In this document: piece after piece, positions 1 to 52,803 of the stretch
Numbering within the stretch: position 1 is the first letter of the stretch
Layout of the letters: the number at the start of each line of letters is the position of its first letter
Assembly: GCF_017168235.1 (NCBI RefSeq)
Contig: NZ_JABFAO010000001.1
Coordinates: 146,048 to 210,047 of the forward strand
Length of the DNA stretch: 64,000 nucleotides
Source of the DNA: Rhodococcus sp. KRD197
GTDB taxonomy: Bacteria > Actinomycetota > Actinomycetes > Mycobacteriales > Mycobacteriaceae
Direction: 5' to 3'
Notes under the pieces: model-generated
Databases searched by the model: none
What the model was told of the DNA's origin: nothing
The model's input: the letters and a program-made list of their open reading frames with translations, nothing else
Position numbers and translations under genes: made by a program

Positions 1-1093
1 GGTCTTCGGCGAGCCCAGCTCGGATCACGGCCGCAATCAAGCATGGTTCGAGTTCTGCAGCCAACTGGGTGAGCTGCTCGAACTCGATCTGGTGGGGCTA
101 CCTGTCCGGAGTTGGGGTTCTGCTGCGGGCCATGCCCTGCGAATGGCTGCCCGGATTACTCGACGCGCTGAAGTCGCGGTTGTCCGTGCGATCGATCCAG
201 AGCGGTTGTCCGTCATCCGCAATTACTGTGAACCGACGGAGATGGAGAGCCACATCGGAGTCCGGTTGGTCGACTACGATCCTGCCAGCGGACTAATCGA
301 CCTGGACGATCTCCGGGCAGCAGTCGGTGAGCAGACTGCGGCGGTCTATTTCGAGACGCCATCCTATCTCGGCGTAATCGAGCAGCAAGGGGCCGAGATC
401 GCGGCTATTGCGCGTGCCGCGGGCGCGGAGACGATCGTCGGTGTCGATCCCATTTCACTGGGCGTTCTTTCATCTCCAGTGGACTTCGGCGCGGACATCG
501 TTGTCGGAACAATTCAACCGCTTGGCGTTCACATGCACACTGGCGGAGGAGTCGGTGGTTTCATCGCCTCACGCGACGAAGATCGCTACGCTCATCAGTA
601 CCCCACTTTGTTCATCAGTATTGCCGAAACGATCAAAACGGGGGAGTACGGATTCGGTCTGAGTCTCTTCGAGCAATCCTCCTATGGTTTGCGAGACAAA
701 GGAAACGACTGGACCGGTCATTCGGTGTACATGTGGGCCATCGCTGCCACCACGTACATGGCGTTGATGGGTCCCCAAGGGTTCGAGGACATCGGGGGGA
801 CGATCCTGCAGCGCTCGCACTATGCGGCCCAGTTGTTGTCCGAGATCGAGGGGATACGTGTCGCCTTCCCGTCGGGATTTTTCAAAGAGTTCGTCGTCAA
901 CTTCGATGACACGGGAAAGACCGTCGATGAGATCAACGCTGCATTGTTGGACAGTGGGATCTTCGGTGGGAAAAATCTGACATCGGAGTTCCCCGAGTTA
1001 GGTGCCAGCGCACTCTATTGCGTCACAGAAATTCATACGAAATCTGATATCGATCGTCTGGTGGGCGCTCTCGGAAAGGTGATTGCACAATGA
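1..1093 (+). CDS. Divergent glycine dehydrogenase subunit 1-like (GcvPA-like), 5' end missing
   Basis: The frame is open from the left edge (first full codon at 2), so the start lies outside the window; 363 residues are visible. The visible part has the fold-type I PLP-enzyme layout of split glycine cleavage P-protein subunit A, with a VGLPVRSWGSAAGHALRMA stretch near the beginning and a GPQG-containing helix region late on. However, the family segment normally read as EQHIRREKA...NICT is replaced by EQSSYGLRDKGND, so this is a divergent paralogue. The stop overlaps the next start as ATGA (1090-1093), which implies translational coupling with the subunit B-like gene. No gcvT or gcvH lies nearby in the window. 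A role in glycine decarboxylation is uncertain, and another amino-acid substrate is possible. Confidence 0.75.
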   Translation, partial: VFGEPSSDHGRNQAWFEFCSQLGELLELDLVGLPVRSWGSAAGHALRMAARITRRAEVAVVRAIDPERLSVIRNYCEPTEMESHIGVRLVDYDPASGLIDLDDLRAAVGEQTAAVYFETPSYLGVIEQQGAEIAAIARAAGAETIVGVDPISLGVLSSPVDFGADIVVGTIQPLGVHMHTGGGVGGFIASRDEDRYAHQYPTLFISIAETIKTGEYGFGLSLFEQSSYGLRDKGNDWTGHSVYMWAIAATTYMALMGPQGFEDIGGTILQRSHYAAQLLSEIEGIRVAFPSGFFKEFVVNFDDTGKTVDEINAALLDSGIFGGKNLTSEFPELGASALYCVTEIHTKSDIDRLVGALGKVIAQ

Positions 1094-2697
1094 GTACTAG
1101 GGTCAACGAAATTCAGGCCCCGGTTTGGAACGAACCGGTCATCATGGAAATGGGTTACCCCGGCCGTCGGGGTGCGGTGATCGCGCAGGCCGAGGAAGGC
1201 ATCGAAGCACGGGTTGGCGCAGCGGTCGACCTGATCCCCACTGCTGTCCGCCGACGCGACCGTCCGGCGTTGCCCGAGATGTCCGAGCCCGAGGTCCTGT
1301 ACCACTACCTGCGCTTGTCACAACAAACGTTGGGAATGATGGGTGTCAGTCTGTTCGGAACATGCACGATGAAATACAACCCGCAGGTCAACGAGGCGCT
1401 TGCCTGGCGGCCGGAAGTCACCGAGGTACATCCGCTGCAGCACGAGGACACGCTCCAGGGAACACTGGAAATTGTGCACGGGATGGATCTCATCCTGCGT
1501 GAGCTCTCAGGGATGGACCAGTTCGTGTTTCAAGCTGGCGGAGGGGCGGAAGCGGCTTTCGTCAACGCCTCGGTCACTCGTGCATACCATGCCTCTCGGG
1601 GTGAGCTGGAACAGCGAAACGAAATCATCACAACTATCCAAACTCACCCCTGCAACGCCGCGACGGCTGCCGCCGCAGGCTTCAAGGTGATTACGTTGAT
1701 GCTCGACGAGAACGGCTACCCGTCCCTTGATGCGCTGAAGGCTGCTGTGTCGAATCGGACCGCCGCCTTGATGGTCGGCAATCCCGATGACATGGGCGTC
1801 TACAACCCGGAGATGAAGGAGTGGGTGGAGATCGTCCACGAAGCCGGCGGCCTTTGTTTCTACGACAGCGCCAATTTCAATGGAACAATGTCGAAGATTC
1901 GACCCCGCGAAATAGGCTTCGATGCATGTATGTTCATGCTTCACAAAACCTTTGGCGCACCCAAGAGCGGCGTCGGAGGGCCCGCCACCGGCGCCTACGG
2001 GTGTTCGGCTGAGCTCGCCCCGTTCCTGCCCGCCCCGCTTGTCACCTTCGACGGTGAGCGCTACCACCTCGATGCCGACCGCCCGAACAGTGTCGGCAAG
2101 ATACGCGAGTTCTGGGGCAACGTGCCTGTGATTCTCAAGGCGTACGCATGGGTGCGAGCAATGGGCGCCGAGGGGATAGCCCAAGCGTCCGACATCTCCG
2201 TCTTGGGGAACAACTACATGGAGAAGGGGCTACTCGCAATCCGAGGGGTGACTCGGTCGCACCCAGAGAGTACGAGCCCTCGCCTCGAAATGACGCGTTA
2301 CAGCATGCAGACTCTCAAAGAAGACACCGGTGTCGACGTGCACGACGTGCAAAACCGTATGACTGACTTCGGAATCGACGCGATGTGGACCAGCCACGAA
2401 CCATGGCTGATACCTGAGCCTTTCACGCCCGAGGCAGGCGAGATGTATGGAAAAGAGTCCTTGGATCGATGGATTGCAGTACTCGCCCAAATTTCGGATG
2501 AAGCTTATTCGAATCCTGAAATCGTGAAATCCTCACCACATAACCAGGCAATCCATCGATTGAAGCCGGGCGTCACCGACGACCCAAGTACTCGCGCGAT
2601 GACCTGGCGCGCCTTTCAGCGAACGCCCGCACGGATCCAGTCGAAGCAGTTCCGGTCGACGGCTGTCGAGCGCACCGAATTAGCAAGTCTGCATTAG
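1090..2697 (+). CDS. Divergent glycine dehydrogenase subunit 2-like (GcvPB-like), PLP-dependent
   Basis: This 535-residue protein has the length and layout of the PLP-binding subunit of split glycine dehydrogenase. The probable PLP lysine is Lys286 in MLHKTFGAP. It is followed by a glycine-rich loop reading GVGGPATG instead of the usual PHGGGGPG, and then by SAELAPFLPAP, which matches the family's HLAPFLP segment. The segment before the lysine, DSANFNGTMSKIRP, also differs from the usual GANLNA form. The ATG overlaps the stop of the subunit A-like gene by four bases, so the two probably form a heterodimer made in equal amounts. The next gene, an acyl-CoA ligase, is 120 bases downstream. The enzyme class is clear; whether glycine is the substrate is not. 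Confidence 0.8.
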   Translation: MSTRVNEIQAPVWNEPVIMEMGYPGRRGAVIAQAEEGIEARVGAAVDLIPTAVRRRDRPALPEMSEPEVLYHYLRLSQQTLGMMGVSLFGTCTMKYNPQVNEALAWRPEVTEVHPLQHEDTLQGTLEIVHGMDLILRELSGMDQFVFQAGGGAEAAFVNASVTRAYHASRGELEQRNEIITTIQTHPCNAATAAAAGFKVITLMLDENGYPSLDALKAAVSNRTAALMVGNPDDMGVYNPEMKEWVEIVHEAGGLCFYDSANFNGTMSKIRPREIGFDACMFMLHKTFGAPKSGVGGPATGAYGCSAELAPFLPAPLVTFDGERYHLDADRPNSVGKIREFWGNVPVILKAYAWVRAMGAEGIAQASDISVLGNNYMEKGLLAIRGVTRSHPESTSPRLEMTRYSMQTLKEDTGVDVHDVQNRMTDFGIDAMWTSHEPWLIPEPFTPEAGEMYGKESLDRWIAVLAQISDEAYSNPEIVKSSPHNQAIHRLKPGVTDDPSTRAMTWRAFQRTPARIQSKQFRSTAVERTELASLH

Positions 2698-2804
2698 AGC
2701 AACGGACGTTCAGAAGCCTTGCGCGCGTGCTCGGACGTTGACCAGTGAACAGTGATCGACTGAACGCGCTGACTCGCAACGACAATGATCACACCGTTTC
2801 GTAT

Positions 2805-2812
2805 GGAAGGAG
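2805..2812 (+). promoter_or_regulatory. Ribosome binding site deciding the ligase start
   Basis: GGAAGGAG lies five bases before GTG at 2818. It makes that GTG a better start than the in-frame ATG at 2785, which has no comparable site. Confidence 0.6.
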
Positions 2813-2817
2813 CCTTC

Positions 2818-4437
2818 GTGACAGGACTGGACACGCCGATAACGCCTCTGAAATTTCTCGAGCGCTCGGCCCAGGTACATCCCAACAAGACCGCAATCGT
2901 CGACGGCAAGCGGCGCATATCGTATTCCGACCTCGCGTCCATAGCGACACGTCTTGCGCATGGTCTGCGCGGGTCAGGAGTCGGACCCGGTGACCGAGTT
3001 GCCTATCTGGCAACCAATTCGGCCGAATTGCTGGCGGCACACTATGCAGTTCCGCTTATCGGCGGCGTACTGGTCGCAATCAACACACGACTGTCGCCAC
3101 CGGAAATCGAGTACATATGCAACCATTCCGAGGCTGTTCTTCTCCTCGGTGAAGTCGACTTGCTCGAACAGCTGCAGAATACTTCCCTGCTGACAGTGCG
3201 GGAGAAAGTTCAACTGCCGCAGCAGGACGGTGGTTACGTGGACACCGAGCAGTCTCACATCACCTATGCAGCACTCATGGAACGCGGGGCCGAAGAGCAT
3301 TTGCCGTGGGAGGTCGACGACGAGACCCGAACGATCTCGATCAACTACACGTCGGGTACCACCGGTCGTCCGAAAGGAGTGATGTACACCCATCGCGGCG
3401 CGTACCTCAATTCTCTCAGTCAGATTCACCATCAGCACTTCGACACTGACACCAAATACCTGTGGACTTTGCCGATGTTCCATTGCAACGGCTGGTGCGG
3501 GCCTTGGGCGGTCACTGCCGCATCCGGAACTCACGTATGTATCCGTGCGGTTCGCGGTGACGCGATGTGGTCACTCATCGACAGCGAGAAGATCGACCAC
3601 ATGAGTGGTGCACCGACTGTTCTCACGACGCTCGCCACTGCCGAAGCGGCGCATCCACTCGACCGCAGCCTGACTATCACTACCGCAGGAGCTCCACCCA
3701 GCCCGACCACCATCCGGGCAGTCAGAGCACTCGGCGCCGAGATAGTGCACGTGTACGGCCTGACCGAGACGTACGGCCCGTGTGCAGTCTGCGAACCCCA
3801 GGCAGAGTGGTCCGCGCTCGATGAGGACACGCTGGCGAGGCTGCTGGCGCGTCAGGGAGTGGGAATGCTCGCCACCGGCCCAGTGCGGGTGGTCCGCGCT
3901 GGACGCGGTCCGCATGGCGAACTCATCGACGTCGCCAGCGACGGTATCGAGATGGGCGAGATCGTGATGCGCGGAAACATCGTCATGAAAGGGTATTTCG
4001 GCGACGACGGGGCCACCGTAGAGGCCTTTTCCGGGGGCTGGTTCCACTCTGGTGACCTGGGAGTCATGCACCCGGATAGCTATATACAGCTCATGGACCG
4101 TGCCAAAGACATCGTCATTTCCGGCGGCGAGAACATCTCTACGATCGAAGTCGAGCAGGTTCTCATGTCCCATCCGTCGGTGTTGGACGTCGCCGTGATC
4201 GGCGTACCGGACACGAAATGGGGAGAGCGACCCAAAGCGTTCGTAGTTCTCAGAACAGATTCCACGATCTCGGATTCCGATCTGACACAGTACGTACGAG
4301 ACCACATTGCAGCCTTCAAAGCGCCACGAGAGATTGTATTTCTATCCGAGTTACCGAAGACCTCGACCGGGAAGACTCGCAAGAACGAGTTGCGCGACCG
4401 CGAATGGAGTGGAGAGCGAGAGCGGATCCGAGGCTGA
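2818..4437 (+). CDS. Acyl-CoA synthetase (AMP-dependent ligase)
   Basis: This protein of 539 residues belongs to the ANL superfamily, which activates a carboxylic acid with ATP and joins it to CoA. The P-loop is YTSGTTGRPKG at about residues 178-188, the A5-type motif is VYGLTETYGP, the hinge region holds SGGENIS, and the catalytic lysine sits near the C-terminus in PKTSTGKTRK. The overall pattern, including ARQGVG after the A5 motif, resembles the medium-chain or AAE-type acyl-CoA ligases. The start was chosen for the strong ribosome binding site at 2805-2812. The gene lies between the GcvP-like pair and an M20 hydrolase on the same strand, so it may activate the acid released by that pathway. 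The acyl substrate cannot be told from sequence. Confidence 0.88.
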   Translation: MTGLDTPITPLKFLERSAQVHPNKTAIVDGKRRISYSDLASIATRLAHGLRGSGVGPGDRVAYLATNSAELLAAHYAVPLIGGVLVAINTRLSPPEIEYICNHSEAVLLLGEVDLLEQLQNTSLLTVREKVQLPQQDGGYVDTEQSHITYAALMERGAEEHLPWEVDDETRTISINYTSGTTGRPKGVMYTHRGAYLNSLSQIHHQHFDTDTKYLWTLPMFHCNGWCGPWAVTAASGTHVCIRAVRGDAMWSLIDSEKIDHMSGAPTVLTTLATAEAAHPLDRSLTITTAGAPPSPTTIRAVRALGAEIVHVYGLTETYGPCAVCEPQAEWSALDEDTLARLLARQGVGMLATGPVRVVRAGRGPHGELIDVASDGIEMGEIVMRGNIVMKGYFGDDGATVEAFSGGWFHSGDLGVMHPDSYIQLMDRAKDIVISGGENISTIEVEQVLMSHPSVLDVAVIGVPDTKWGERPKAFVVLRTDSTISDSDLTQYVRDHIAAFKAPREIVFLSELPKTSTGKTRKNELRDREWSGERERIRG

Positions 4438-4560
4438 TGCTTTCCACCTAATCCATCTACCCATACAGAGGACTGCGAATCGGTGGGTCCGACGACCGAC
4501 CGTTGCAGAATCCACTCGCTAATCGCTCAGCGAGCACATCAATCTCGAAAGGACGCGGAC

Positions 4561-5868
4561 ATGACAGAAGATGCAGTTCGTCGGGTACTCGCAGCGATCG
4601 AGGGCTCACGCGAACGGATTGTCGACGACGTGAAACGATTGGTCGAGGTCCCCAGTGTGAATCCGAATTATCCTGGCGTGCGACCCGAAGACTATCTCGG
4701 TCAGGAATCCGAGGCGAACCTCTTGCTCCGCGACAGATTCGGCTATCTGTTCGACAGCTCCCAGTTGGTCAAGAGCGTTGCGAAACGCGAGAACCTCGCG
4801 GGTGTCGTGAAGGGCGGCGGCACTGGGCGGTCGCTGTTGCTCAACGGCCACATCGACGTCGTGCCGGCCGGAAACCTCGATACGTGGACTGGTGACCCCT
4901 TCGTCGCGAAGGTAGCTTCCGGCCGAATACACGGCCGAGGGGCAAGCGACATGAAGAGCGGAGTGGTTGCCGCATTCAGTGCGATCGAAGCGATCCGAAC
5001 GTCGGGTATCGACCTGGCCGGCGACCTCGTCGTTCATTCCGTGGCAGGCGAAGAACTTGGCGAGCACGAAGTCGGGACAGGTTGCGTGCTGGAACACGGA
5101 TACACAGCGGACGCGGCAATAGTCGTCGAGCCATCCGCTAGTTTTGATTCTCCGCTGACGATCAATCCAACCGCTGCGAGCTTGTTGTGGGGTCGAGTCC
5201 GAGTCGAGGGACTCGCCGGGCATCCAGGGCTTCGCCGCGAGCTGATACGGGCCGGCGGGGCCGGTGCACGTGCGGGCGTGAACGCGATCGACAAAGGCTA
5301 CTTGGTCCTGCAAGCGCTGTACGGGATCGAAGAGCAATGGGGGCTGGGCAAGCAACGCCCGCTGTTCAAACCAGGGCACTTCGTCGTCATGCCCGGAACG
5401 ATTCATGGACGTGGGAAAGACATCGACATTCCATTTGTCTTCGCCGAGTACTGTGAAATCGATTTCATCGTGTGGTATCCACCGGAGGACGACGCCGATG
5501 CGGTGAAGCTCGAGATCGAGAGTTTCGTCAACCGGTCGGTCTCCTTGGATCCCTGGTTGACGGATCACCCACCCACCTACGAGTGGCTGGTCGAGTTTCC
5601 AGGATTCAGCACCCAAAATGATCACGAAATCGTCCGAACTCTCGGTAGCGCTCACGAACAGGGGACCGGCCTCACTGCAATAGTCGAAGCGTTTCCCGCC
5701 GCCTGCGATGCGACATGGATTGCCCGAACAGATATCCCGGTTGTGAATTACGGGCCGGGCCATCTGGCAAACGCCCACAAGCCGAACGAATACTGTGATG
5801 TGGACGAAATCATTTCCGCGACGAAGAGTTTGGCTCTCACAGCACTCGATTGGTGTGGTGTGCGGTGA
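4561..5868 (+). CDS. M20 family metallohydrolase (ArgE/DapE/acylase type)
   Basis: This 435-residue M20-family zinc hydrolase would cleave an amide bond, typically an N-acyl amino acid. The metal and catalytic residues are in place: His97 in NGHIDVVP, Asp130 in ASDMKSG, Glu164-Glu165 in AGEELGEHE, Glu190 in VVEPSA and His406 in NAHKPNEY. The frame extends upstream to 4483, but AAAGGA stands just before ATG 4561 and the family N-terminus begins there. No signal peptide is visible, so it should be cytoplasmic. It follows the ligase by 123 bases on the same strand, and an acylase next to an acyl-CoA ligase suggests cleavage of a conjugate followed by activation of the freed acid. That pairing is inference. 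Confidence 0.85.
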   Translation: MTEDAVRRVLAAIEGSRERIVDDVKRLVEVPSVNPNYPGVRPEDYLGQESEANLLLRDRFGYLFDSSQLVKSVAKRENLAGVVKGGGTGRSLLLNGHIDVVPAGNLDTWTGDPFVAKVASGRIHGRGASDMKSGVVAAFSAIEAIRTSGIDLAGDLVVHSVAGEELGEHEVGTGCVLEHGYTADAAIVVEPSASFDSPLTINPTAASLLWGRVRVEGLAGHPGLRRELIRAGGAGARAGVNAIDKGYLVLQALYGIEEQWGLGKQRPLFKPGHFVVMPGTIHGRGKDIDIPFVFAEYCEIDFIVWYPPEDDADAVKLEIESFVNRSVSLDPWLTDHPPTYEWLVEFPGFSTQNDHEIVRTLGSAHEQGTGLTAIVEAFPAACDATWIARTDIPVVNYGPGHLANAHKPNEYCDVDEIISATKSLALTALDWCGVR

Positions 5869-6636: not shown

Positions 6637-8124
6637 TCATCGGTTGTCGAGTTCTGATTCGGCCGCTTCGAGAGCCGCGAATTCTTCTTCTGGTGCCTTC
6701 GCGACGAGATGGTGTCGGCTGTAGAACGCGAAGTAGGCGATCATCACTGCGTACGCGGCGGCCGCATACAACACCACCGAGGGTTCGACCATGAACCCGG
6801 CGGCGAGGGCGGCGACTGCAAGAACCAGAGCGATTCCGGAGGTGAGCATCCCACCGGGGGTTCGGTAGGGGCGGTGCAAGTTCGGTTCCCGAACCCGCAA
6901 GACGATGTGCGAGATCATCATCAGTATGTACGAGACGGTGGCCCCGAACACCGAGATCAAGATGAGCAGGTCCCCAGAGCTGGTGAGAGACAGGATGAAA
7001 CCGATCACTCCGGGCACGATGAGTGCCAAGAACGGGATCTTGCGGCCGTTGGTCAGCGACAACACCTTGGGCAGGTAGCCGGCCCGCGAAAGTGCGAACG
7101 TCTGCCGCGAGTAGGCATAGGTGATGGTGAAGAAGCTCGACACCAGACCCACCAGACCGATGACGTTGACGAACTGGCTCAGCCAGGTACTGCCGCCGTT
7201 CGCGGTTTCCATAGCGTCGATCAATGGATTGTCGGAGTCCTGCAGATTCGATGCTCCCGAACCGCCGGGGCCGAGGGTCAGCAACAGTGCGGCAAGGGTG
7301 AGCAGCACCAGCACACCACCGATCAGTCCTTTGGGGACGTCGTGCACCGGGTTGCGGGCCTCCTCGGACGCGAGGGGCACACCTTCGACTGCGAGGAAGA
7401 ACCACATCGCGTAGGGCAATGCAGCCCAGACCCCGACGATGCCGAACGGGAGGAAGCTGCTGGCGCCCACAGCGTCGGTCGGGGCGATATCGACGAGGTT
7501 GCTGACATCGAAGTGCGGGATCATTCCTATCGAGAAGGCCAGCAATCCGATCACTGCGACGATGGCGATACCGAACATCAGCTTGAGCACTTGTGAGACG
7601 CCGTACAGGTGCAAACCTATGAATGCGATGTAGAACACCGCGTACACCAGCGGACCGCTGATCCCGAAGAGAGTGTCCATGTACGCGCCGATGAAAGTGA
7701 CCACTGCGGCCGGGGCAAGCACGAATTCGAGGAGCACCGCTGTACCGGTCAGGAAGCCGCCCCAGGGCCCCATCGCGCGACGGGCGAAGCCGTAACCGCC
7801 ACCAGCGGTGGGGATGATCGAAGCCATCTCTGCCAGTGCCAGACACATCGCGGTGTACATCAAGCCCATGAGCCCAACCGCGATGAGCATGCCACCCCAG
7901 CCGGCGTACCCGATTCCGAAGTTCCAACCGGCGTAGTCACCCGCGACGACGTAGCCCACGCCGAGTCCGATCAGCAGGACGGGCCCGGCGGTGCCGCGAC
8001 GGAGTTGGCGACGGAGCATGTAGTCGTCGGCGACGTTGTCGTAGTCGACTCCACCTGCGGCGTGGGCACCGGTCGTGCCCGACTGCGCGGGATGACCGGA
8101 GGCAGCGTGCGGATGTGTGCTCAC
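6637..8124 (-). CDS. APC family permease, ethanolamine permease-like
   Basis: This protein of 495 residues has about twelve hydrophobic segments. It carries the N-terminal pattern VVAGDYAGWNFGIGYAGWGG, which recalls the ethanolamine permease branch of the APC superfamily. That branch imports ethanolamine or related amines across the inner membrane. The GTG at 8124 overlaps the amine oxidase stop as GTGA (8121-8124), and GAGGA stands eight bases upstream, so it is translationally coupled to the oxidase. An in-frame GTG/ATG-type start at 8145 is less likely. The tight coupling suggests that the substrate it imports is the one oxidised by the amine oxidase. Amino-acid transport is the alternative. 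Confidence 0.82.
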   Translation of the reverse strand: MSTHPHAASGHPAQSGTTGAHAAGGVDYDNVADDYMLRRQLRRGTAGPVLLIGLGVGYVVAGDYAGWNFGIGYAGWGGMLIAVGLMGLMYTAMCLALAEMASIIPTAGGGYGFARRAMGPWGGFLTGTAVLLEFVLAPAAVVTFIGAYMDTLFGISGPLVYAVFYIAFIGLHLYGVSQVLKLMFGIAIVAVIGLLAFSIGMIPHFDVSNLVDIAPTDAVGASSFLPFGIVGVWAALPYAMWFFLAVEGVPLASEEARNPVHDVPKGLIGGVLVLLTLAALLLTLGPGGSGASNLQDSDNPLIDAMETANGGSTWLSQFVNVIGLVGLVSSFFTITYAYSRQTFALSRAGYLPKVLSLTNGRKIPFLALIVPGVIGFILSLTSSGDLLILISVFGATVSYILMMISHIVLRVREPNLHRPYRTPGGMLTSGIALVLAVAALAAGFMVEPSVVLYAAAAYAVMIAYFAFYSRHHLVAKAPEEEFAALEAAESELDNR

Positions 8125-10064
8125 GCGTGGTCCTCGCATCCGCAATGCGCGCCCTCGGTCTTCTGCTCGGGACGAGGCAGGTTCAGGGTGGGGTTCTGAT
8201 CGAAGAATCCGTGGGGTTGGAGGATGAACCCGACGTGCTGTCGCGGCATGACCGGCCAGTCTTCGAGGCGCACCACGTGATGCATGCCGAAGGTGTACCA
8301 GACCACGATGTCTTCGTCGACGATACTTCGGTTGCCCGCGATATATGCGGGTAGGCCGTCGCCGCCGCGGGACTGGTTCGGGTATTCCCCCGCCGGAAAG
8401 CGTTCGTCCTCTTCGTATGCGGTGACCCAGAAGTTGTTGGTGGCGAACCCTGCTCGCTTGGCCACCCAGGAGTCCGGAGTGGCGGACAACGTAATTGCGT
8501 CGGTGGGCTGGAGTCGGTACGCAACCGGTTCGTCGACGATGTTGCGTTGTTCATGGTTGACGATCTTCCAGAATCGGTGCTTGTCGGCGTCGGCGCGTCG
8601 TACTGCGTCTTGTTCTCGTTCGAGAAGGCGGTCAACGGTGTAGAAGATGTTCTGGGTGTCGTTGACTTCGGGTACGACTGTATCGACCTCGTACACAGCG
8701 TTCTTGGTGCCGTCGAGTTCGAAGTCCATCCGCACGTTGAAGATGTGCTGGTGGATGGGGGCGTAGAGGCCGTCGTTGTTGAGGGTTTGCCCGTACAGCG
8801 ATTTGGTGCCCGGTTGCTGGCCTGCAGTGGAGAGGATCCCGGTGGCCTTGACGAGGAACTCGATGGTGCCGTCTAGGTAGAGGTGCCAGTAGAAGCCGTA
8901 CTCGTAATTGGCGACGGTGGCTATGAAGGAAATGATCAGCTTTCGTGAACGCCGAACTTCGGCGGTGTCCTGTCGGTAGTCGTAGTGCTTCCACATGATC
9001 GAGTCGTCTTCTTCGTGCATGCAGATCGCGTTCTCGATCGTCAACGGGTTTCCGTGACTGTCAGTGACGATGCCGTCGAAATACTGGATCTCACCGAGAC
9101 AGTCGCAACCGAGCGCAAGGGAATTGGCCAGAGCGCCGATGTTGTACTCACCGGCGTCGAAGGCGTTCTTCTTGTGCTGAACTGGAGACGGGTCCCCATA
9201 GGGCACAACCATTTCCACAAGCGAGGCGCGGTTGATGACCGATCGATCCGCGCCACCGTCCCGGAACTTCAGTTGGTGCAGTACCAAGCCCTCGCGAGGC
9301 GTGAAGCCGACACGAAAACTCCAGTCACCCCAGGTCACGTGCTGGCCCTCGACCTGGAACGAGCGGCCGTGGGGGGAGGTGATCTCGAGGGGCTTGATGT
9401 CGGTACGTGCTGGTCCGACATGCTGGGGCAGATAGTTGCCGGTGTGTCGGGGGACCGGGATCAGGCCGTTGTCCTCTACTTCCACAACCTCACCGCTATT
9501 GAGGTCATAGATGATGATCAATCCTTCGGCCGGGTGCGCGTACGGGCTGTCATTGGCGTCCAGGCGGGTGAACACGAGGGCGCGCATCAGGCGGCGACCC
9601 TGGTCGTCCTTGCCGAAATAGCCTGCCGACCACGGCTCTATGCAGACCAGATCCAGGTCGGTCAGCCCGCGCGCGGCCAGAGCTTCGACGACGCGGGGGT
9701 CCCGTTTGCAATTGACCTCGCATTCCTCGAACTCGTCGAGCATGATCGGCGGTTGAACGCCTTTCGGCAGTTCCACCCACCGCTCGACGCTTTCGTTTTC
9801 GAGGTCGATGGTCGCTTCGTAACCGCATCCCGTAGACCGGTCGATCAGTACTGCGCTTGCCTCGCGGCGGATCTGCGACAAGTCGCCACGCAGTGCCCTT
9901 TTCGTGGGTTCTTTCAACTCCACCTGCACGAACCTGAAGCTGTCGGATTGGGCCTGTGTGCTTTTCAGCACTGACACCGCCGCACGGACTTCATTCCGGC
10001 TGAGAGGATCGAGCGGATGGGTTCTCGCTGTCGCGGCTGTGCGATCGATTTCCTGAATAGACAT
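8121..10064 (-). CDS. Copper-containing primary amine oxidase
   Basis: This 647-residue quinoprotein would oxidise a primary amine to the aldehyde, releasing ammonia and hydrogen peroxide. Tyr387 in ATVANYEYGFYWH is the residue that becomes topaquinone, since it fits the N-Y-E/D-Y consensus. Asp303 in AFDAGEY is the expected catalytic base. Copper ligands are visible as PIHQHIF and in the late GMHHVVRLEDWPVMP region. The ATG at 10064 was preferred to an upstream start at 10097 because AAGGAG precedes it by ten bases. No export signal is visible, as in the Arthrobacter enzymes of this family. It is the first gene of a three-gene minus-strand operon with an ethanolamine-type permease. Phenethylamine, tyramine, histamine or ethanolamine are all possible substrates. 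Confidence 0.93.
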   Translation of the reverse strand: MSIQEIDRTAATARTHPLDPLSRNEVRAAVSVLKSTQAQSDSFRFVQVELKEPTKRALRGDLSQIRREASAVLIDRSTGCGYEATIDLENESVERWVELPKGVQPPIMLDEFEECEVNCKRDPRVVEALAARGLTDLDLVCIEPWSAGYFGKDDQGRRLMRALVFTRLDANDSPYAHPAEGLIIIYDLNSGEVVEVEDNGLIPVPRHTGNYLPQHVGPARTDIKPLEITSPHGRSFQVEGQHVTWGDWSFRVGFTPREGLVLHQLKFRDGGADRSVINRASLVEMVVPYGDPSPVQHKKNAFDAGEYNIGALANSLALGCDCLGEIQYFDGIVTDSHGNPLTIENAICMHEEDDSIMWKHYDYRQDTAEVRRSRKLIISFIATVANYEYGFYWHLYLDGTIEFLVKATGILSTAGQQPGTKSLYGQTLNNDGLYAPIHQHIFNVRMDFELDGTKNAVYEVDTVVPEVNDTQNIFYTVDRLLEREQDAVRRADADKHRFWKIVNHEQRNIVDEPVAYRLQPTDAITLSATPDSWVAKRAGFATNNFWVTAYEEDERFPAGEYPNQSRGGDGLPAYIAGNRSIVDEDIVVWYTFGMHHVVRLEDWPVMPRQHVGFILQPHGFFDQNPTLNLPRPEQKTEGAHCGCEDHA

Positions 10065-10508
10065 GCGTGCCTCGCTCCTTGGGGATAGATCGTCCACGCG
10101 TCGACATCACGACGAAGGCCTCGATGGTGGCGGGCGTTTACGGTCGGCACGGCCGCCGGCCCATCATGAAGCGATCAGTGGGGGATCTGCGTAATCACGG
10201 TTTCGATACGTGGTGAAGTGATCGGCTGTCCGATGCCTTCGAGGTATTGCTCGAACCTGTGGCTGTGACCAACCGCTCACCACCAAGACCGTAACCCTGC
10301 ACTGTGACGGCAGGCACTCGTCGGCGAGAACCAGGGTGAGAACTTCGACGCGGAAAATTCTCGATCTGGTTAACATGAATGAAACATTTGTGTCATCCAA
10401 GAGCAATGTTCGAGTTCGACCCTGGCACTACATCGATCACATCCAGGGCCGATCGCAGCTGCTGATCAGGCAAATCCCACTGCTTTTGCAGAGACGAGCA
10501 ATCGGAAC
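10065..10508. promoter_or_regulatory. Divergent intergenic region with an imperfect palindrome at 10379-10396
   Basis: These 444 bases hold no convincing gene. They separate the minus-strand amine oxidase operon from the plus-strand permease/IclR operon and so must hold both promoters. The best structure is ATGAAACA-TT-TGTGTCAT at 10379-10396, an 18-base palindrome with a single mismatched pair. It lies 113 bases before the permease start and could be the site of the IclR protein encoded downstream. That assignment is inferred only from position and symmetry. Confidence 0.4.
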
Positions 10509-11981
10509 ATGACAACTTCGCCGCACAAGCGGGCGCTGGTCGCCAAGCACTCACCCGTACAGGGATTGCCGCGCCGCCAGTTGCCGTTCATACCGGTGTT
10601 CGCGCAGTCCGTCGCCGCGGTTGCACCCTCAGGCGCGGCGGCGGTGATCCCTGTACTAGTGATCAGTTCCGCAGGCGGGGGCGGTGCGCTCGTGGCTTTC
10701 GCTTGCGCGGCTGCGATCATCCTGCTCGTCTCGGCATGCCTGCGGCCAATGGCCCAGAGAATGGCATCGGTGGGCGGAATCTACAGCTACACCGCCCGCG
10801 GCCTCGGTCCGGCTGTCGCTGTGCCAACCGGATGGTCCGCGATTGTCGGATATGCGACGGTAGGCATGGCCGGCTTGATCGCCGTCGGTACTTACCTTTC
10901 GCATATCGTCGTAGCTACCGGCTTGGTTCGAGCCATTCCCGTGGGCGTGATCATTGCGGTGATGGTGGTGGCGGCAGCGGGTGCCACCCTGGTCATGATT
11001 CGCGGAATTCGAGTCTCGGCTCGAATCACCCTGCTGGTCGAATGCGTTTCCATCGGGCTCGTCGGTGCCCTGCTAATTCTGCTTATGGTCACCACGACTC
11101 GCGCCGGCGCCCCTCCCTCTGCTGCCATGAATTGGGAGGGCAACGCGCAAAGTACCGCGTTGTCGATCATCGTCGCAGTCAGCGCCTTTGTCGGCTTCGA
11201 AAGCTCGACCACGCTGAGCGGTGAGGCCCGCCAACCATTTCTGTCAGTGCCGCGAGTGATCAGGTGGACCCCCGTCGCTGCCGCGGCGCTATATTTGATC
11301 GCCTTGCCGGTGCAGGCGATCGCCCTCGCCTACGCCCCCGATTCGGTGCGCGAGAGCGCCACGCCAATGGTGGCTCTGCTGACATCTCAGGGCTCGACCA
11401 GTCTTGCAGCCATCCTCGACCTGGGAATCGCTGCCTCGTTTTTTGCGTGCACCCTCGCGTCGATCAACGCCCTCGTGCGAGTGCTGTTCTGCATGGGCCG
11501 CGAGGGTGTCGCTCCTTCACCTCTCGGTCGCACCCACCCACGTTTTCAAACGCCTGCCTCCGCCATCGGCGTATCCATGATCGTGGTAACAGCTATCCCG
11601 GTCTCGGTTCTGCTTGCCGGTGTTTCCCCTGACCAGGGTTTGCGAATTTTCCTTACGTTGAGCGCATGCGGATATATCGGTAGCTACCTGGCCGGGTGCT
11701 TGTCCGCACCAATACTGTTGCGGCGGATAGGAGAGTCGACCCCCTCTGTCTGGGTGCTCGGTGTCGCAACCACCACCATCCTGTTGGTTCTGGTCGTCAA
11801 CGCCGTAGTCTTTGCTGTCCAAGACGGGGTTGTGCTCATCGCGGCGTACGCCTTGATCATGGCCGTGGCGGTGCTCTACACCGTTGCGCTTCGTCAACTG
11901 GCTCCACATCGACTCGAGTCGGTCGGCATTTACGACGAGACCCAGCTCAGCGACCTATTGCCCGCAGCAACGTTCCGATGA
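10509..11981 (+). CDS. APC superfamily amino acid/amine permease
   Basis: This 490-residue membrane protein has about twelve hydrophobic segments. It carries APC signatures such as GGIYSYTARGLGP in the second or third segment and SAFVGFESSTTLSGEAR in the middle, typical of proton-coupled amino-acid or amine importers. The start ATG 10509 begins a hydrophilic N-terminus before the first helix. Its stop overlaps the IclR regulator start as ATGA (11978-11981), so the regulator is made with the transporter. It differs clearly from the permease at 6637-8124, so the locus carries two distinct amine or amino-acid uptake systems. The substrate is unknown. Confidence 0.82.
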   Translation: MTTSPHKRALVAKHSPVQGLPRRQLPFIPVFAQSVAAVAPSGAAAVIPVLVISSAGGGGALVAFACAAAIILLVSACLRPMAQRMASVGGIYSYTARGLGPAVAVPTGWSAIVGYATVGMAGLIAVGTYLSHIVVATGLVRAIPVGVIIAVMVVAAAGATLVMIRGIRVSARITLLVECVSIGLVGALLILLMVTTTRAGAPPSAAMNWEGNAQSTALSIIVAVSAFVGFESSTTLSGEARQPFLSVPRVIRWTPVAAAALYLIALPVQAIALAYAPDSVRESATPMVALLTSQGSTSLAAILDLGIAASFFACTLASINALVRVLFCMGREGVAPSPLGRTHPRFQTPASAIGVSMIVVTAIPVSVLLAGVSPDQGLRIFLTLSACGYIGSYLAGCLSAPILLRRIGESTPSVWVLGVATTTILLVLVVNAVVFAVQDGVVLIAAYALIMAVAVLYTVALRQLAPHRLESVGIYDETQLSDLLPAATFR

Positions 11982-51078: not shown

Positions 51079-52803
51079 ATGACCACCGTTGAACACCGCC
51101 CGTCCGACACCCTCGCCACACCACTGACACTCGAGTGCGGGCAAACCCTGCCCAACCGGCTCATGAAAGCAGCACTCAGCGAGGGGCTGGGCACCGCCTC
51201 ACACGCCCCCGACGCCCGGCTCGAGCGCCTCTACGCCCAGTGGGGATCGGGCGGCTACGGGCTCGTGGTGACCGGAAACGTCATGGTCGACCGCAGGCAC
51301 ATCGGCGAACCGGGCAACGTGGTCATCGAGGACGACCGGGATCTCGACGCCCTCACCCGCTGGGCCGACGCGTTCAAGACCGGCGCGTCCGCAGCAGATG
51401 CACGCCCGTCGATATGGATGCAGCTCAACCACCCGGGCCGCCAAGCCAATCCCCTCGCGACCCGGGCCAGGCCGGTCGCGCCGTCGGCGATCGCGTCGAA
51501 CGTTCCAGGGCTGCCGGTACCCGAGGCGCTGACGTCAGAACAGATCGAGGACATCGTCGACCGCTTCGCGAGAGCAGCCGTGGTCGCCGAGACCGCGGGC
51601 TTCGACGGCGTCCAGATTCACGGGGCGCACGGTTACCTCGTCTCGCAGTTCCTCTCCCCCAGTGCGAACAAGCGGGATGACGCCTGGGGCGGCGATCTCG
51701 AGGGGCGGATGCGATTCCCCCTCGCCGTGGTCCGCGCCATCCGCGCCGCAGTATCGCCAGGTTTCGCCGTCGGCATCAAACTGAACTCCGCGGACTTCCA
51801 GAAGGGCGGGTTCAGCGAGGAAGAGTCTCGCCTGGTGGTCGAACGTCTCGTGCACGAGCACATCGACCTCATCGAGATCAGTGGCGGCAGTTACGAATCC
51901 CCGGCGATGATGGGGCTCTCGCACAAGGCTGCGCCGGACAGCACCTCCCAGCGTGAAGCGTATTTCCTGGACTATGCGCGCGAGGTTCGGCTCGCCGCAG
52001 GCGCAGTCCCCCTCGCCGTGACCGGCGGCTTTCGGACGCGTTCGGCGATGACCCTCGCTGTCGAATCGAGCGACTGCGACGTCGTCGGACTGGGCCGGCC
52101 GGCTGCCGTCGCCACCGACGCAGGCCACGCGTTGATCCGCGACGAGGTCGACCGGCTGGAATCGCCGCGCATCACCCTCGGACTCCCCAAACGTTATGCA
52201 CCACTGAAAGCTCTGGACGGCGCCCTCGATCTGCAGTGGCACACCGACCAACTACATCTGATCGGCGCCGGCGGAGAGCCCGATCCGCAGCGAGCCGTGT
52301 GGCGAACCGCGGTGACCACGTTGCGCCGCAACGGGTTCGATGCCTTCCGTAGCCGCCGCAGCGGAACTGCGGCCACCGGTGACACCTCTCGAAAGTTCCA
52401 GGTCGAACGCGTCGTCGGAAAATACGTCGCCAACCCGCTCGTACGCGGGCTCACCGGTGCCGGTGTCCAGGTCAAGCTCATGACCGACATCGAGACCGTG
52501 GGACGCAAGTCCGGGCTGACCCGTCGGGTACCGGTATCGGCGAAGTTCGACGAGACCGGCGCGTGGATCATCTCCCAGCACGGAACCCGGTCGGGATGGG
52601 GCGCGAACATCACCGCCGACCCGCGGGTGCGGCTGCGGGTCGGTGACCGGTGGCGCAGTGGGATCGCAGAATTCGTCCACGGCGACGATGTCGCGATCCG
52701 GGCCAGGTCGTTTGCGAACAACGCGGTGCTCGGCCGACTCGTCGGGGCCACCTTCGCCGCCCTGGCGACGACACCGGTGTCCGTGCGGGTGACGTTCGAC
52801 TAA
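51079..52803 (+). CDS. Old yellow enzyme fused to a deazaflavin (F420)-type nitroreductase domain
   Basis: This 574-residue protein has two domains. Residues about 1-390 are an OYE-type FMN barrel: IWMQLNHPGRQ holds the conserved HPGRQ, IHGAHGYLVSQFLSP is the substrate-binding histidine loop, and VTGGFRTRSAMTLAV is a late phosphate-binding segment. Residues about 430-574 resemble the Ddn/PF04075 F420-dependent family (METVGRKSGLTRRVPV-like ETVGRKSGLTRRVP, then WGANITADPRVRLRVGDRW). Each family alone is a common ene- or nitro-reductase, and I know no characterised fusion. The start is ATG 51079. It is divergent from a TetR regulator whose palindrome overlaps its promoter. Confidence 0.85.
   Translation: MTTVEHRPSDTLATPLTLECGQTLPNRLMKAALSEGLGTASHAPDARLERLYAQWGSGGYGLVVTGNVMVDRRHIGEPGNVVIEDDRDLDALTRWADAFKTGASAADARPSIWMQLNHPGRQANPLATRARPVAPSAIASNVPGLPVPEALTSEQIEDIVDRFARAAVVAETAGFDGVQIHGAHGYLVSQFLSPSANKRDDAWGGDLEGRMRFPLAVVRAIRAAVSPGFAVGIKLNSADFQKGGFSEEESRLVVERLVHEHIDLIEISGGSYESPAMMGLSHKAAPDSTSQREAYFLDYAREVRLAAGAVPLAVTGGFRTRSAMTLAVESSDCDVVGLGRPAAVATDAGHALIRDEVDRLESPRITLGLPKRYAPLKALDGALDLQWHTDQLHLIGAGGEPDPQRAVWRTAVTTLRRNGFDAFRSRRSGTAATGDTSRKFQVERVVGKYVANPLVRGLTGAGVQVKLMTDIETVGRKSGLTRRVPVSAKFDETGAWIISQHGTRSGWGANITADPRVRLRVGDRWRSGIAEFVHGDDVAIRARSFANNAVLGRLVGATFAALATTPVSVRVTFD

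What the first reader, a model, noticed from the sequence alone, without database searches (positions are those of the whole stretch)
1..5868. Divergent split glycine-dehydrogenase-like pair in an operon with an acyl-CoA ligase and an M20 hydrolase
Seen: two coupled PLP-type subunits, then a ligase and a zinc hydrolase, all on one strand, with no gcvT or gcvH beside them. Known: true glycine cleavage needs T and H proteins and is not normally linked to an acylase and an acyl-CoA ligase. Inferred: this may be an undescribed catabolic route in which an N-acyl amino acid or similar conjugate is cleaved, the acid is activated and the amine part is handled by the GcvP-like heterodimer. This is the strongest candidate here for a new system.
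Basis: partly seen in the sequence, partly recalled or inferred. Interest (0 to 1): 0.7.

Follow-up and report, generated by a model that had tools for sequence, protein, structure and literature searches.

The report
Kinase-linked mislabelled glycine-dehydrogenase-like enzyme
Two bacterial genes labelled as glycine dehydrogenase belong to a separate enzyme family that is almost always found with a little-studied kinase gene, and related gene sets sit beside sugar-removing enzymes that could suit the sugar-bearing amino acid of collagen, so the pair probably breaks down hydroxylated amines rather than glycine.

Summary
The four ORFs are real. The pair is unlikely to be a glycine cleavage P-protein: both subunits form their own clade (100% SH-aLRT, quick trees), positions conserved in genuine P-proteins are replaced, no gcvT/gcvH was found in 102 divergent loci, and 22 of 22 host genomes tested carry a genuine P and H elsewhere. 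The constant partner, just left of the window, is an ATP-NAD-kinase-family gene (88 of 93 loci, several gene orders). A sister group in the window's class couples the same three genes to a sugar-type ABC importer, a GH42 beta-galactosidase-like and a GH63 glycosidase and an SDR (7 of 7, then 52 of 55 loci; 0 of 20 control windows). That outfit could suit Glc-alpha-1,2-Gal-beta-hydroxylysine of collagen. I infer that the kinase phosphorylates a hydroxyamine and the PLP heterodimer eliminates phosphate and ammonia, giving an aldehyde: a functional analogue of hydroxylysine kinase plus phospho-lyase. The Rhodococcus substrate is unknown. No activity was tested and no structure model was obtained.

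The parts
2..1093 (+). GcvPA-like subunit (PA), C-terminal part; the gene begins left of the window at about -349 (L004:15699-17141)
   Evidence: NF001696 GcvPA 445 bits over the full protein (cut-off 364); own clade, 100% SH-aLRT; conserved differences at 342-356 of the 480-aa protein
1090..2697 (+). GcvPB-like subunit (PB) with the PLP lysine K286 in HKTF
   Evidence: NF003346 516 bits, cut-off 441; own clade, 100% SH-aLRT; 26 columns conserved differently from genuine P-proteins
2785..4437 (+). AMP-binding acyl-CoA ligase (start may be 2803 or 2818); accessory
   Evidence: in 14 of 93 related loci at >=40% identity over >=60% of its length
4561..5868 (+). M20 ArgE/DapE-type hydrolase (ORF open from 4483; start judged from the R. 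qingshengii homologue); accessory
   Evidence: in 4 of 93 related loci, all Rhodococcus
6637..8145 (-). APC-type permease beside the amine oxidase; possible part of the same catabolic region
   Evidence: homologue in the RHA1 locus at 93%
8121..10097 (-). Copper amine oxidase, close to phenylethylamine oxidase; occasional neighbour of the three-gene set
   Evidence: 565 bits to 1rjo; in 5 of 93 loci

Best explanation
SHOWN: the pair is one member of a distinct GcvP-like PLP family that keeps the PLP lysine but has lost positions conserved in glycine cleavage P-proteins; it is linked to a kinase of the ATP-NAD-kinase family in nearly all relatives examined, in several gene orders. INFERRED: the kinase phosphorylates the hydroxyl of a 1,2-hydroxyamine; the PA/PB heterodimer binds the amine as a PLP aldimine, removes a proton and eliminates phosphate, and the enamine hydrolyses to aldehyde plus ammonia. 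No lipoyl H-protein or folate T-protein is needed. The aldehyde is then oxidised or reduced by neighbouring dehydrogenases and, where a ligase is present, the acid becomes an acyl-CoA. In the actinomycete sister group the substrate would be 5-hydroxylysine freed from Glc-alpha-1,2-Gal-beta-hydroxylysine by the GH63 and GH42 glycosidases. In Rhodococcus the substrate is a hydroxyamine not identified here; the M20 enzyme might release it from an N-acyl conjugate.
For: Own clade for PB and PA. 26 PB and 9 PA columns conserved differently, 7 of the 9 within PA 342-356. gcvT/gcvH in 0 of 102 divergent loci but in 10 of 11 split loci used as genuine reference, and in 0 of 60 further loci. GcvH and a genuine P-protein (19 single-chain, 3 split) elsewhere in 22 of 22 host genomes tested. 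Kinase in 88 of 93 loci, in orders KIN-PA-PB, KIN on the opposite strand, and PA-PB-KIN; a kinase match in 22 of 24 host genomes. An ordinary NAD kinase elsewhere in the window's genome. Sister group: GH42, GH63, sugar-type SBP and SDR with PA-PB-KIN in 7 of 7 and 52 of 55 loci, none in 20 control windows at the same thresholds; compact operon in L222. One GH63 tested (L039) matches YgjK, one GH42 tested (L044) matches beta-galactosidases. Collagen carries Glc-alpha-1,2-Gal-beta-Hyl (PMC8537180, passages). Kinase plus PLP phospho-lyase for hydroxylysine is known in mammals (Veiga-da-Cunha 2012, seen only as a title in reference lists).
Against: No activity, structure or substrate was tested. 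NCBIfam equivalog models call both subunits GcvPA and GcvPB above cut-off. Two MAG genomes with PA-PB (L098, L100) have no kinase match. One sister-group locus, L233, has the triad and SDR without glycosidases or importer. Only 22 of 62 sister-group loci have the GH63 with a YgjK_N-like arm; 39 have a shorter MGH1-like GH63 and 1 has none, so the alpha-1,2-glucosyl-galactose reading rests on a minority; it also rests on recall for YgjK specificity. The glycoside context is absent from the window's own clade (0 of 93) and from 5 further lower-scoring loci, so carrying the chemistry over to Rhodococcus is an extrapolation. K292 replaces a histidine conserved in genuine P-proteins in 93 of 102 rows, but the 9 sister rows keep histidine. 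I found no stated substrate for AcoX or this kinase; a functional study of AcoX (Xiao 2012) is cited in PMC9676059 but I did not see it.
Confidence: 0.42

Rival explanations
1. Kinase plus PLP enzyme act in sequence, but the PLP step is a decarboxylation or retro-aldol cleavage of a phosphorylated amino acid or amino alcohol (like sphingosine kinase and S1P lyase, or PduX and CobD; analogies recalled), not phosphate elimination.
For: GcvP chemistry is decarboxylation at a PLP aldimine (general knowledge); kinase linkage as; a PLP gene of another class overlaps a homologous kinase gene in Peptoclostridium.
Against: For the hydroxylysine reading the known precedent is elimination. Not distinguishable from sequence here.
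Confidence: 0.22
2. A glycine or N-substituted-glycine decarboxylase isoform that borrows GcvH and GcvT encoded elsewhere.
For: Sequence family, PLP lysine and NCBIfam equivalog scores above cut-off; GcvH present in 22 of 22 host genomes tested.
Against: Loss of positions conserved in genuine P-proteins; own clade; a genuine P-protein already present in 22 of 22; unexplained kinase and glycosidase linkage.
Confidence: 0.12
3. The kinase is a true NAD kinase supplying NADP to neighbouring reductases, and PA/PB is functionally separate.
For: Pfam NAD_kinase N and C domains above cut-off; many neighbours are SDR, OYE or dehydrogenase families.
Against: The reductases vary between loci while the kinase stays with PA/PB; profile alignment to 23 NAD kinases of the window's class is only 19% identical and shows no aligned NE motif (the 23 were kept only if they had NE and GGDG[TS]); the genome has its own NAD kinase.
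Confidence: 0.1
4. One reading: the four genes form one pathway for an N-acyl amino acid, with PA/PB acting on the freed amino acid.
For: All four genes on one strand in four Rhodococcus loci.
Against: M20 in 4 and ligase in 14 of 93 loci; does not explain the kinase.
Confidence: 0.08

Closest known systems
Glycine cleavage system P-protein, split form (GcvPA/GcvPB; Thermus 1wyt)
   Same: Same sequence family, two subunits encoded in tandem, PLP lysine motif HKTF kept; 331.6 bits to 1wyt chain B with the clade profile A1
   Different: Own clade; PHGGGGPG and the PA 342-356 stretch altered; no gcvT/gcvH beside it; kinase linked
AcoX / ATP-NAD kinase family genes of acetoin operons
   Same: Annotated as ATP-NAD kinase family or NAD(+)/NADH kinase in plasmid records, GGDGT motif; PMC9676059 calls acoX a predicted NAD kinase and PMC6722718 reports an ATP-NAD kinase gene in an acoABC operon (passages)
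   Different: Here linked to a PLP enzyme, not to a thiamine-dependent dehydrogenase; the AcoX label is recalled and identity to AcoX was not measured
Mammalian hydroxylysine kinase and phosphohydroxylysine phospho-lyase
   Same: Proposed reaction logic: kinase, then PLP ammonio-phospho-lyase
   Different: Mammalian enzymes belong to other families (recalled: aminoglycoside-phosphotransferase-like kinase and class III aminotransferase fold)
E. coli YgjK (GH63) and GH42 beta-galactosidases
   Same: One sister-group GH63 (L039) and one GH42 (L044) match them strongly
   Different: Here they sit with a PLP enzyme and a kinase; most sister-group GH63 lack the YgjK_N-like arm

Membership tests
Glycine cleavage P-protein (GcvPA/GcvPB) | PLP-binding lysine motif | tested here: met
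   HKTF at 285-288; K286 invariant in the 33-row alignment A5
Glycine cleavage P-protein (GcvPA/GcvPB) | NCBIfam equivalog cut-offs | tested here: met
   PA 445 vs 364, PB 516 vs 441 bits
Glycine cleavage P-protein (GcvPA/GcvPB) | Positions conserved in genuine P-proteins (H of PHGGGGPG; PA 342-356 stretch) | tested here: not met
   26 PB columns (102 vs 24 rows) and 9 PA columns (100 vs 13 rows) conserved differently, at >=90% and >=85% of rows
Glycine cleavage P-protein (GcvPA/GcvPB) | Groups with P-proteins encoded beside gcvT/gcvH | tested here: not met
   PB: 102 divergent rows on one side of a 100% branch of length 1.99; PA: 100 against 20 rows, 100%. Unrooted; the clade may have arisen from within split P-proteins
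Glycine cleavage P-protein (GcvPA/GcvPB) | gcvT/gcvH in the neighbourhood of split P genes | tested here: not met
   0 of 102 divergent loci; 10 of 11 reference split loci, L153 the exception; three short loci (L021, L023, L047) without a hit are uninformative
Glycine cleavage P-protein (GcvPA/GcvPB) | Glycine decarboxylation with lipoylated H-protein | not testable with these tools
   Needs an enzyme assay
NAD kinase | GGDGT motif and NAD_kinase domains | tested here: met
NAD kinase | NE dinucleotide-binding motif (motif recalled) | tested here: inconclusive
   Not aligned in the profile comparison; probability 84.7%, 19% identity
Hydroxyamine kinase plus ammonio-phospho-lyase (functional class) | Kinase and PLP enzyme encoded together | tested here: met
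   88 of 93, 60 of 60 further loci
Hydroxyamine kinase plus ammonio-phospho-lyase (functional class) | Release of phosphate, ammonia and aldehyde | not testable with these tools
   Needs an enzyme assay
   M20 4 of 93, ligase 14 of 93

The most novel reading that the evidence does not exclude
Bacteria have a second, independently evolved route for hydroxyamines: an ATP-NAD-kinase-family enzyme that phosphorylates the hydroxyl and a GcvP-fold PLP heterodimer that eliminates phosphate and ammonia. Actinomycetes use it to consume the Glc-Gal-hydroxylysine units of collagen; a wide set of soil and marine bacteria, including this Rhodococcus, use relatives of it on other hydroxyamines, hidden under the label glycine dehydrogenase.
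Probability: 0.3. Interest if true: 0.88.

Novelty: new variant of a known kind. Interest (0 to 1): 0.72.

Why it matters
The 7 annotated plasmid records read here label these genes gcvPA/gcvPB; if that label is wrong it distorts metabolic models of glycine and one-carbon flow. The finding would give this ATP-NAD-kinase family a testable role, and it proposes genes for bacterial use of hydroxylysine and of the collagen disaccharide unit.

Tried and rejected
Considered and rejected: the four genes as a conserved unit. The window genes as a second ordinary GCS. KIN as a sugar kinase of the glycosidase operons: it stays with PA/PB in the window clade, where no GH42/GH63 was found (0 of 93). KIN as a housekeeping NAD kinase. 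Opine-like or hydroxyproline-like pathways for the alphaproteobacterial loci (FAD oxidases, DHDPS, OYE): not resolved. Ten literature searches (two searches returned nothing) listed no paper that I recognised as describing the three-gene set; I judged from listings and from passages of six papers (searches give seven look-ups of PMC9676059, PMC8305020, PMC6722718, PMC12674515, PMC8537180, PMC4564198, PMC8233209, i.e. seven papers), and only open-licence PMC papers are searched. No solved structure matched the kinase profile at E<=0.01. Gene calls by longest ORF were unreliable in high-GC loci and were replaced by tblastn.

Limits: the 80 named loci are the best 80 of 369 relatives and were found with patterns [FY]MLHKTFG or TCTMKYN, so PB columns 91 and 283 are biased in those rows; near-identical loci are counted singly, not merged. 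Trees are quick-method, unrooted, with long branches flagged by the program. Flanks vary and some contigs are short. Left out of the PB tree: L022, L046, L047; L024 gave no PB. The 22 host genomes are a hand-picked part of the 80 named loci. The 150-bit SDR and other thresholds were set; two control windows had weaker SDR hits (114 and 149 bits). Five fetched loci (L270-L274) were set apart by lower score (574-648 bits), not by a tree; counting them, GH42 is in 54 of 60. Neighbourhood families come from clustering with thresholds of mine. On recheck I lowered two odds: best explanation 0.45 to 0.42 and novel case 0.35 to 0.30, and raised the decarboxylation/retro-aldol rival from 0.20 to 0.22, because one search shows the YgjK-type GH63 in only 22 of 62 sister loci.
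Full report
Observation. The first is cut by the window edge. Reading 16 kb to the left shows an APC permease, an SDR and a 384-aa ATP-NAD-kinase-family gene (KIN) directly upstream; the listed ORFs of KIN and PA, and of PA and PB, overlap by 4 bases. There is no gcvT or gcvH there. The genome's GcvH match and a single-chain GcvP lie on another contig.

Not an ordinary glycine cleavage enzyme. NCBIfam labels both subunits GcvPA/GcvPB above cut-off, and the 7 annotated plasmid records of relatives carry that name. Trees and residues disagree. In the PB tree of 126 rows the 93 window-type rows plus 9 sister rows lie beyond a branch of length 1.99 with 100% SH-aLRT; in the PA tree 100 divergent rows separate from 20 others with 100%. 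Both trees are quick-method and unrooted and the program warns of long branches, so the clade may have arisen from within split P-proteins. Comparing 102 divergent with 24 genuine PB rows gives 26 columns conserved differently (>=90% against >=85% of rows) while K286 of HKTF stays; in PA (100 against 13 rows) 9 columns differ, 7 of them within residues 342-356. Two of the PB columns (91, 283) lie inside the patterns used to find 80 of the loci; column 91 is also fixed in the 9 sister rows, which came from other searches, column 283 is not. tblastn with GcvT and GcvH finds neither in 102 divergent loci, whereas 10 of 11 reference split loci have both; L153 has neither and three short loci tell nothing. 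All 22 host genomes examined, a hand-picked part of the named loci, hold GcvH and a genuine P-protein elsewhere, single-chain in 19 and split in 3.

The real unit. The search for related loci returned the best 80 of 369 relatives. The five without KIN are L032 (a kinase lies elsewhere on the same plasmid), L087 (its contig starts in PB), L099 (its contig starts just before PA), and L098 and L100, whose genomes have no kinase match at E<=1e-10. The order varies: of 95 loci with both, KIN lies just before PA on the same strand in 70, on the opposite strand within 1 kb in 13, after PB in the 7 sister loci, and otherwise in 5: L069 (only a partial PA hit), L079, L114, L115 and L093, the last 7.7 kb away. 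In 22 of the 24 host genomes searched a kinase match was found. The ligase is in 14 of 93 loci at >=40% identity over 60% of its length, the M20 gene in 4, the copper amine oxidase in 5, the APC permease in 4. PB of this type occurs in Actinomycetota, Pseudomonadota, a Bacteroidota genome and a haloarchaeal plasmid and on plasmids in several hosts, which suggests horizontal transfer. In the genus it is rare: the window's own genome and one other of 37.

Context of the sister group. Pfam scans of neighbours showed sugar-type ABC parts and glycosidases, and tblastn found GH42, GH63, sugar-type binding protein and SDR in all 7. To repeat this I searched two families (297 and 394 genomes; 40 and 28 hits) and fetched 60 loci: 55 of the 59 unread sister-type hits and 5 lower-scoring ones, set apart by score. 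Among the 55, PA, PB and KIN were in 55, GH42 in 54, GH63 in 53, SBP in 54, SDR in 54, all seven in 52. L233 lacks GH42, GH63 and SBP; L278 (GH63) and L220 (SDR) are on short contigs. The 5 lower-scoring loci have PA, PB and KIN and none of the rest. At the same thresholds none of the seven was found in 20 control windows that I picked in the same genomes; two had weaker SDR hits of 114 and 149 bits. Where all scored genes were present, 33 loci were single-strand and 20 divergent two-arm. L222 is a compact operon GH42-PA-PB-KIN-SDR-SBP-permease-permease-GH63, the permeases judged by eye from their sequences and place. The GH63 is of two forms: one with a YgjK_N-like arm in 22 of 62 sister loci (the tested L039 protein gives 507 bits to YgjK 3w7s), and a shorter MGH1-like one in 39; one locus has none. 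The tested GH42 (L044) gives 550 bits to a beta-galactosidase.

Interpretation. An alpha-glucosidase of GH63 plus a GH42 beta-galactosidase is what would be needed to strip Glc-alpha-1,2-Gal-beta from hydroxylysine, the structure listed for collagen in PMC8537180 (passages). That YgjK favours Glc-alpha-1,2-Gal is recalled from glycosynthase work and could not be checked, and most sister loci have the other GH63 form, so this reading of the sugar is open. Hydroxylysine is a 1,2-hydroxyamine, and its mammalian catabolism is a kinase followed by a PLP phospho-lyase (title seen in reference lists only). The genes common to this context and to the window are exactly a kinase and a PLP enzyme. The simplest shared chemistry is therefore phosphorylation of a hydroxyamine followed by PLP-dependent loss of phosphate and ammonia. 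This would explain the missing T and H proteins, the altered positions and the varied downstream dehydrogenases and ligase. It is an inference from gene neighbourhood; nothing was assayed and no structure was obtained. The substrate in Rhodococcus is unknown; the copper amine oxidase, close to phenylethylamine oxidase, and the ligase hint at amines whose aldehyde ends as an acyl-CoA, and the M20 enzyme may act upstream.

The kinase. It carries GGDGT and both NAD_kinase Pfam domains, matches no solved structure at E<=0.01 and aligns to 23 NAD kinases of the window's class at 19% identity without an aligned NE motif (those 23 were kept by a script that required NE and GGDG[TS]). The window's genome has an ordinary NAD kinase elsewhere. 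PMC9676059 calls acoX a predicted NAD kinase and cites a functional study that I did not see; PMC6722718 reports an ATP-NAD kinase gene in an acoABC operon (passages). The likeness to AcoX is recalled and was not measured.

Verdict. I file the pair as a new, kinase-linked variant of the GcvP-like PLP family with a proposed phospho-lyase role at confidence 0.42.

Noticed in passing
L128:10013-12089: In Peptoclostridium acidaminophilum a homologous ATP-NAD-kinase-family gene overlaps a class I/II-fold PLP enzyme gene, another kinase plus PLP pairing of a different kind.
   Followed up: no
L098 and L100: Two MAG genomes carry PA-PB of the window type but no kinase match at E<=1e-10; beside the pair lie what look by eye like solute-binding lipoproteins.
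   Followed up: partly
L233:1-19901: A sister-group locus of full fetched length with triad and SDR but no GH42, GH63 or sugar-type binding protein.
   Followed up: no
L046: A genome of the same family (G340) holds a PA-like gene split over two frames, apparently a remnant.
   Followed up: no
window 51079-52803: One ORF matches an OYE-type flavin oxidoreductase domain and an F420H2-dependent quinone reductase domain.
   Followed up: no
L004:8848-10417: Left of the window a 171-aa ORF matches only the C-terminal part of intradiol dioxygenases, overlapping an iron-type alcohol dehydrogenase gene.
   Followed up: no
window 10509-11981: A further APC permease gene (+ strand) next to the copper amine oxidase; the RHA1 locus has homologues of both.
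   Followed up: partly
sister-group loci, e.g. L039 and L044: Two different GH63 forms, with and without a YgjK_N-like arm, occupy the same neighbourhood role and follow the two gene arrangements.
   Followed up: partly
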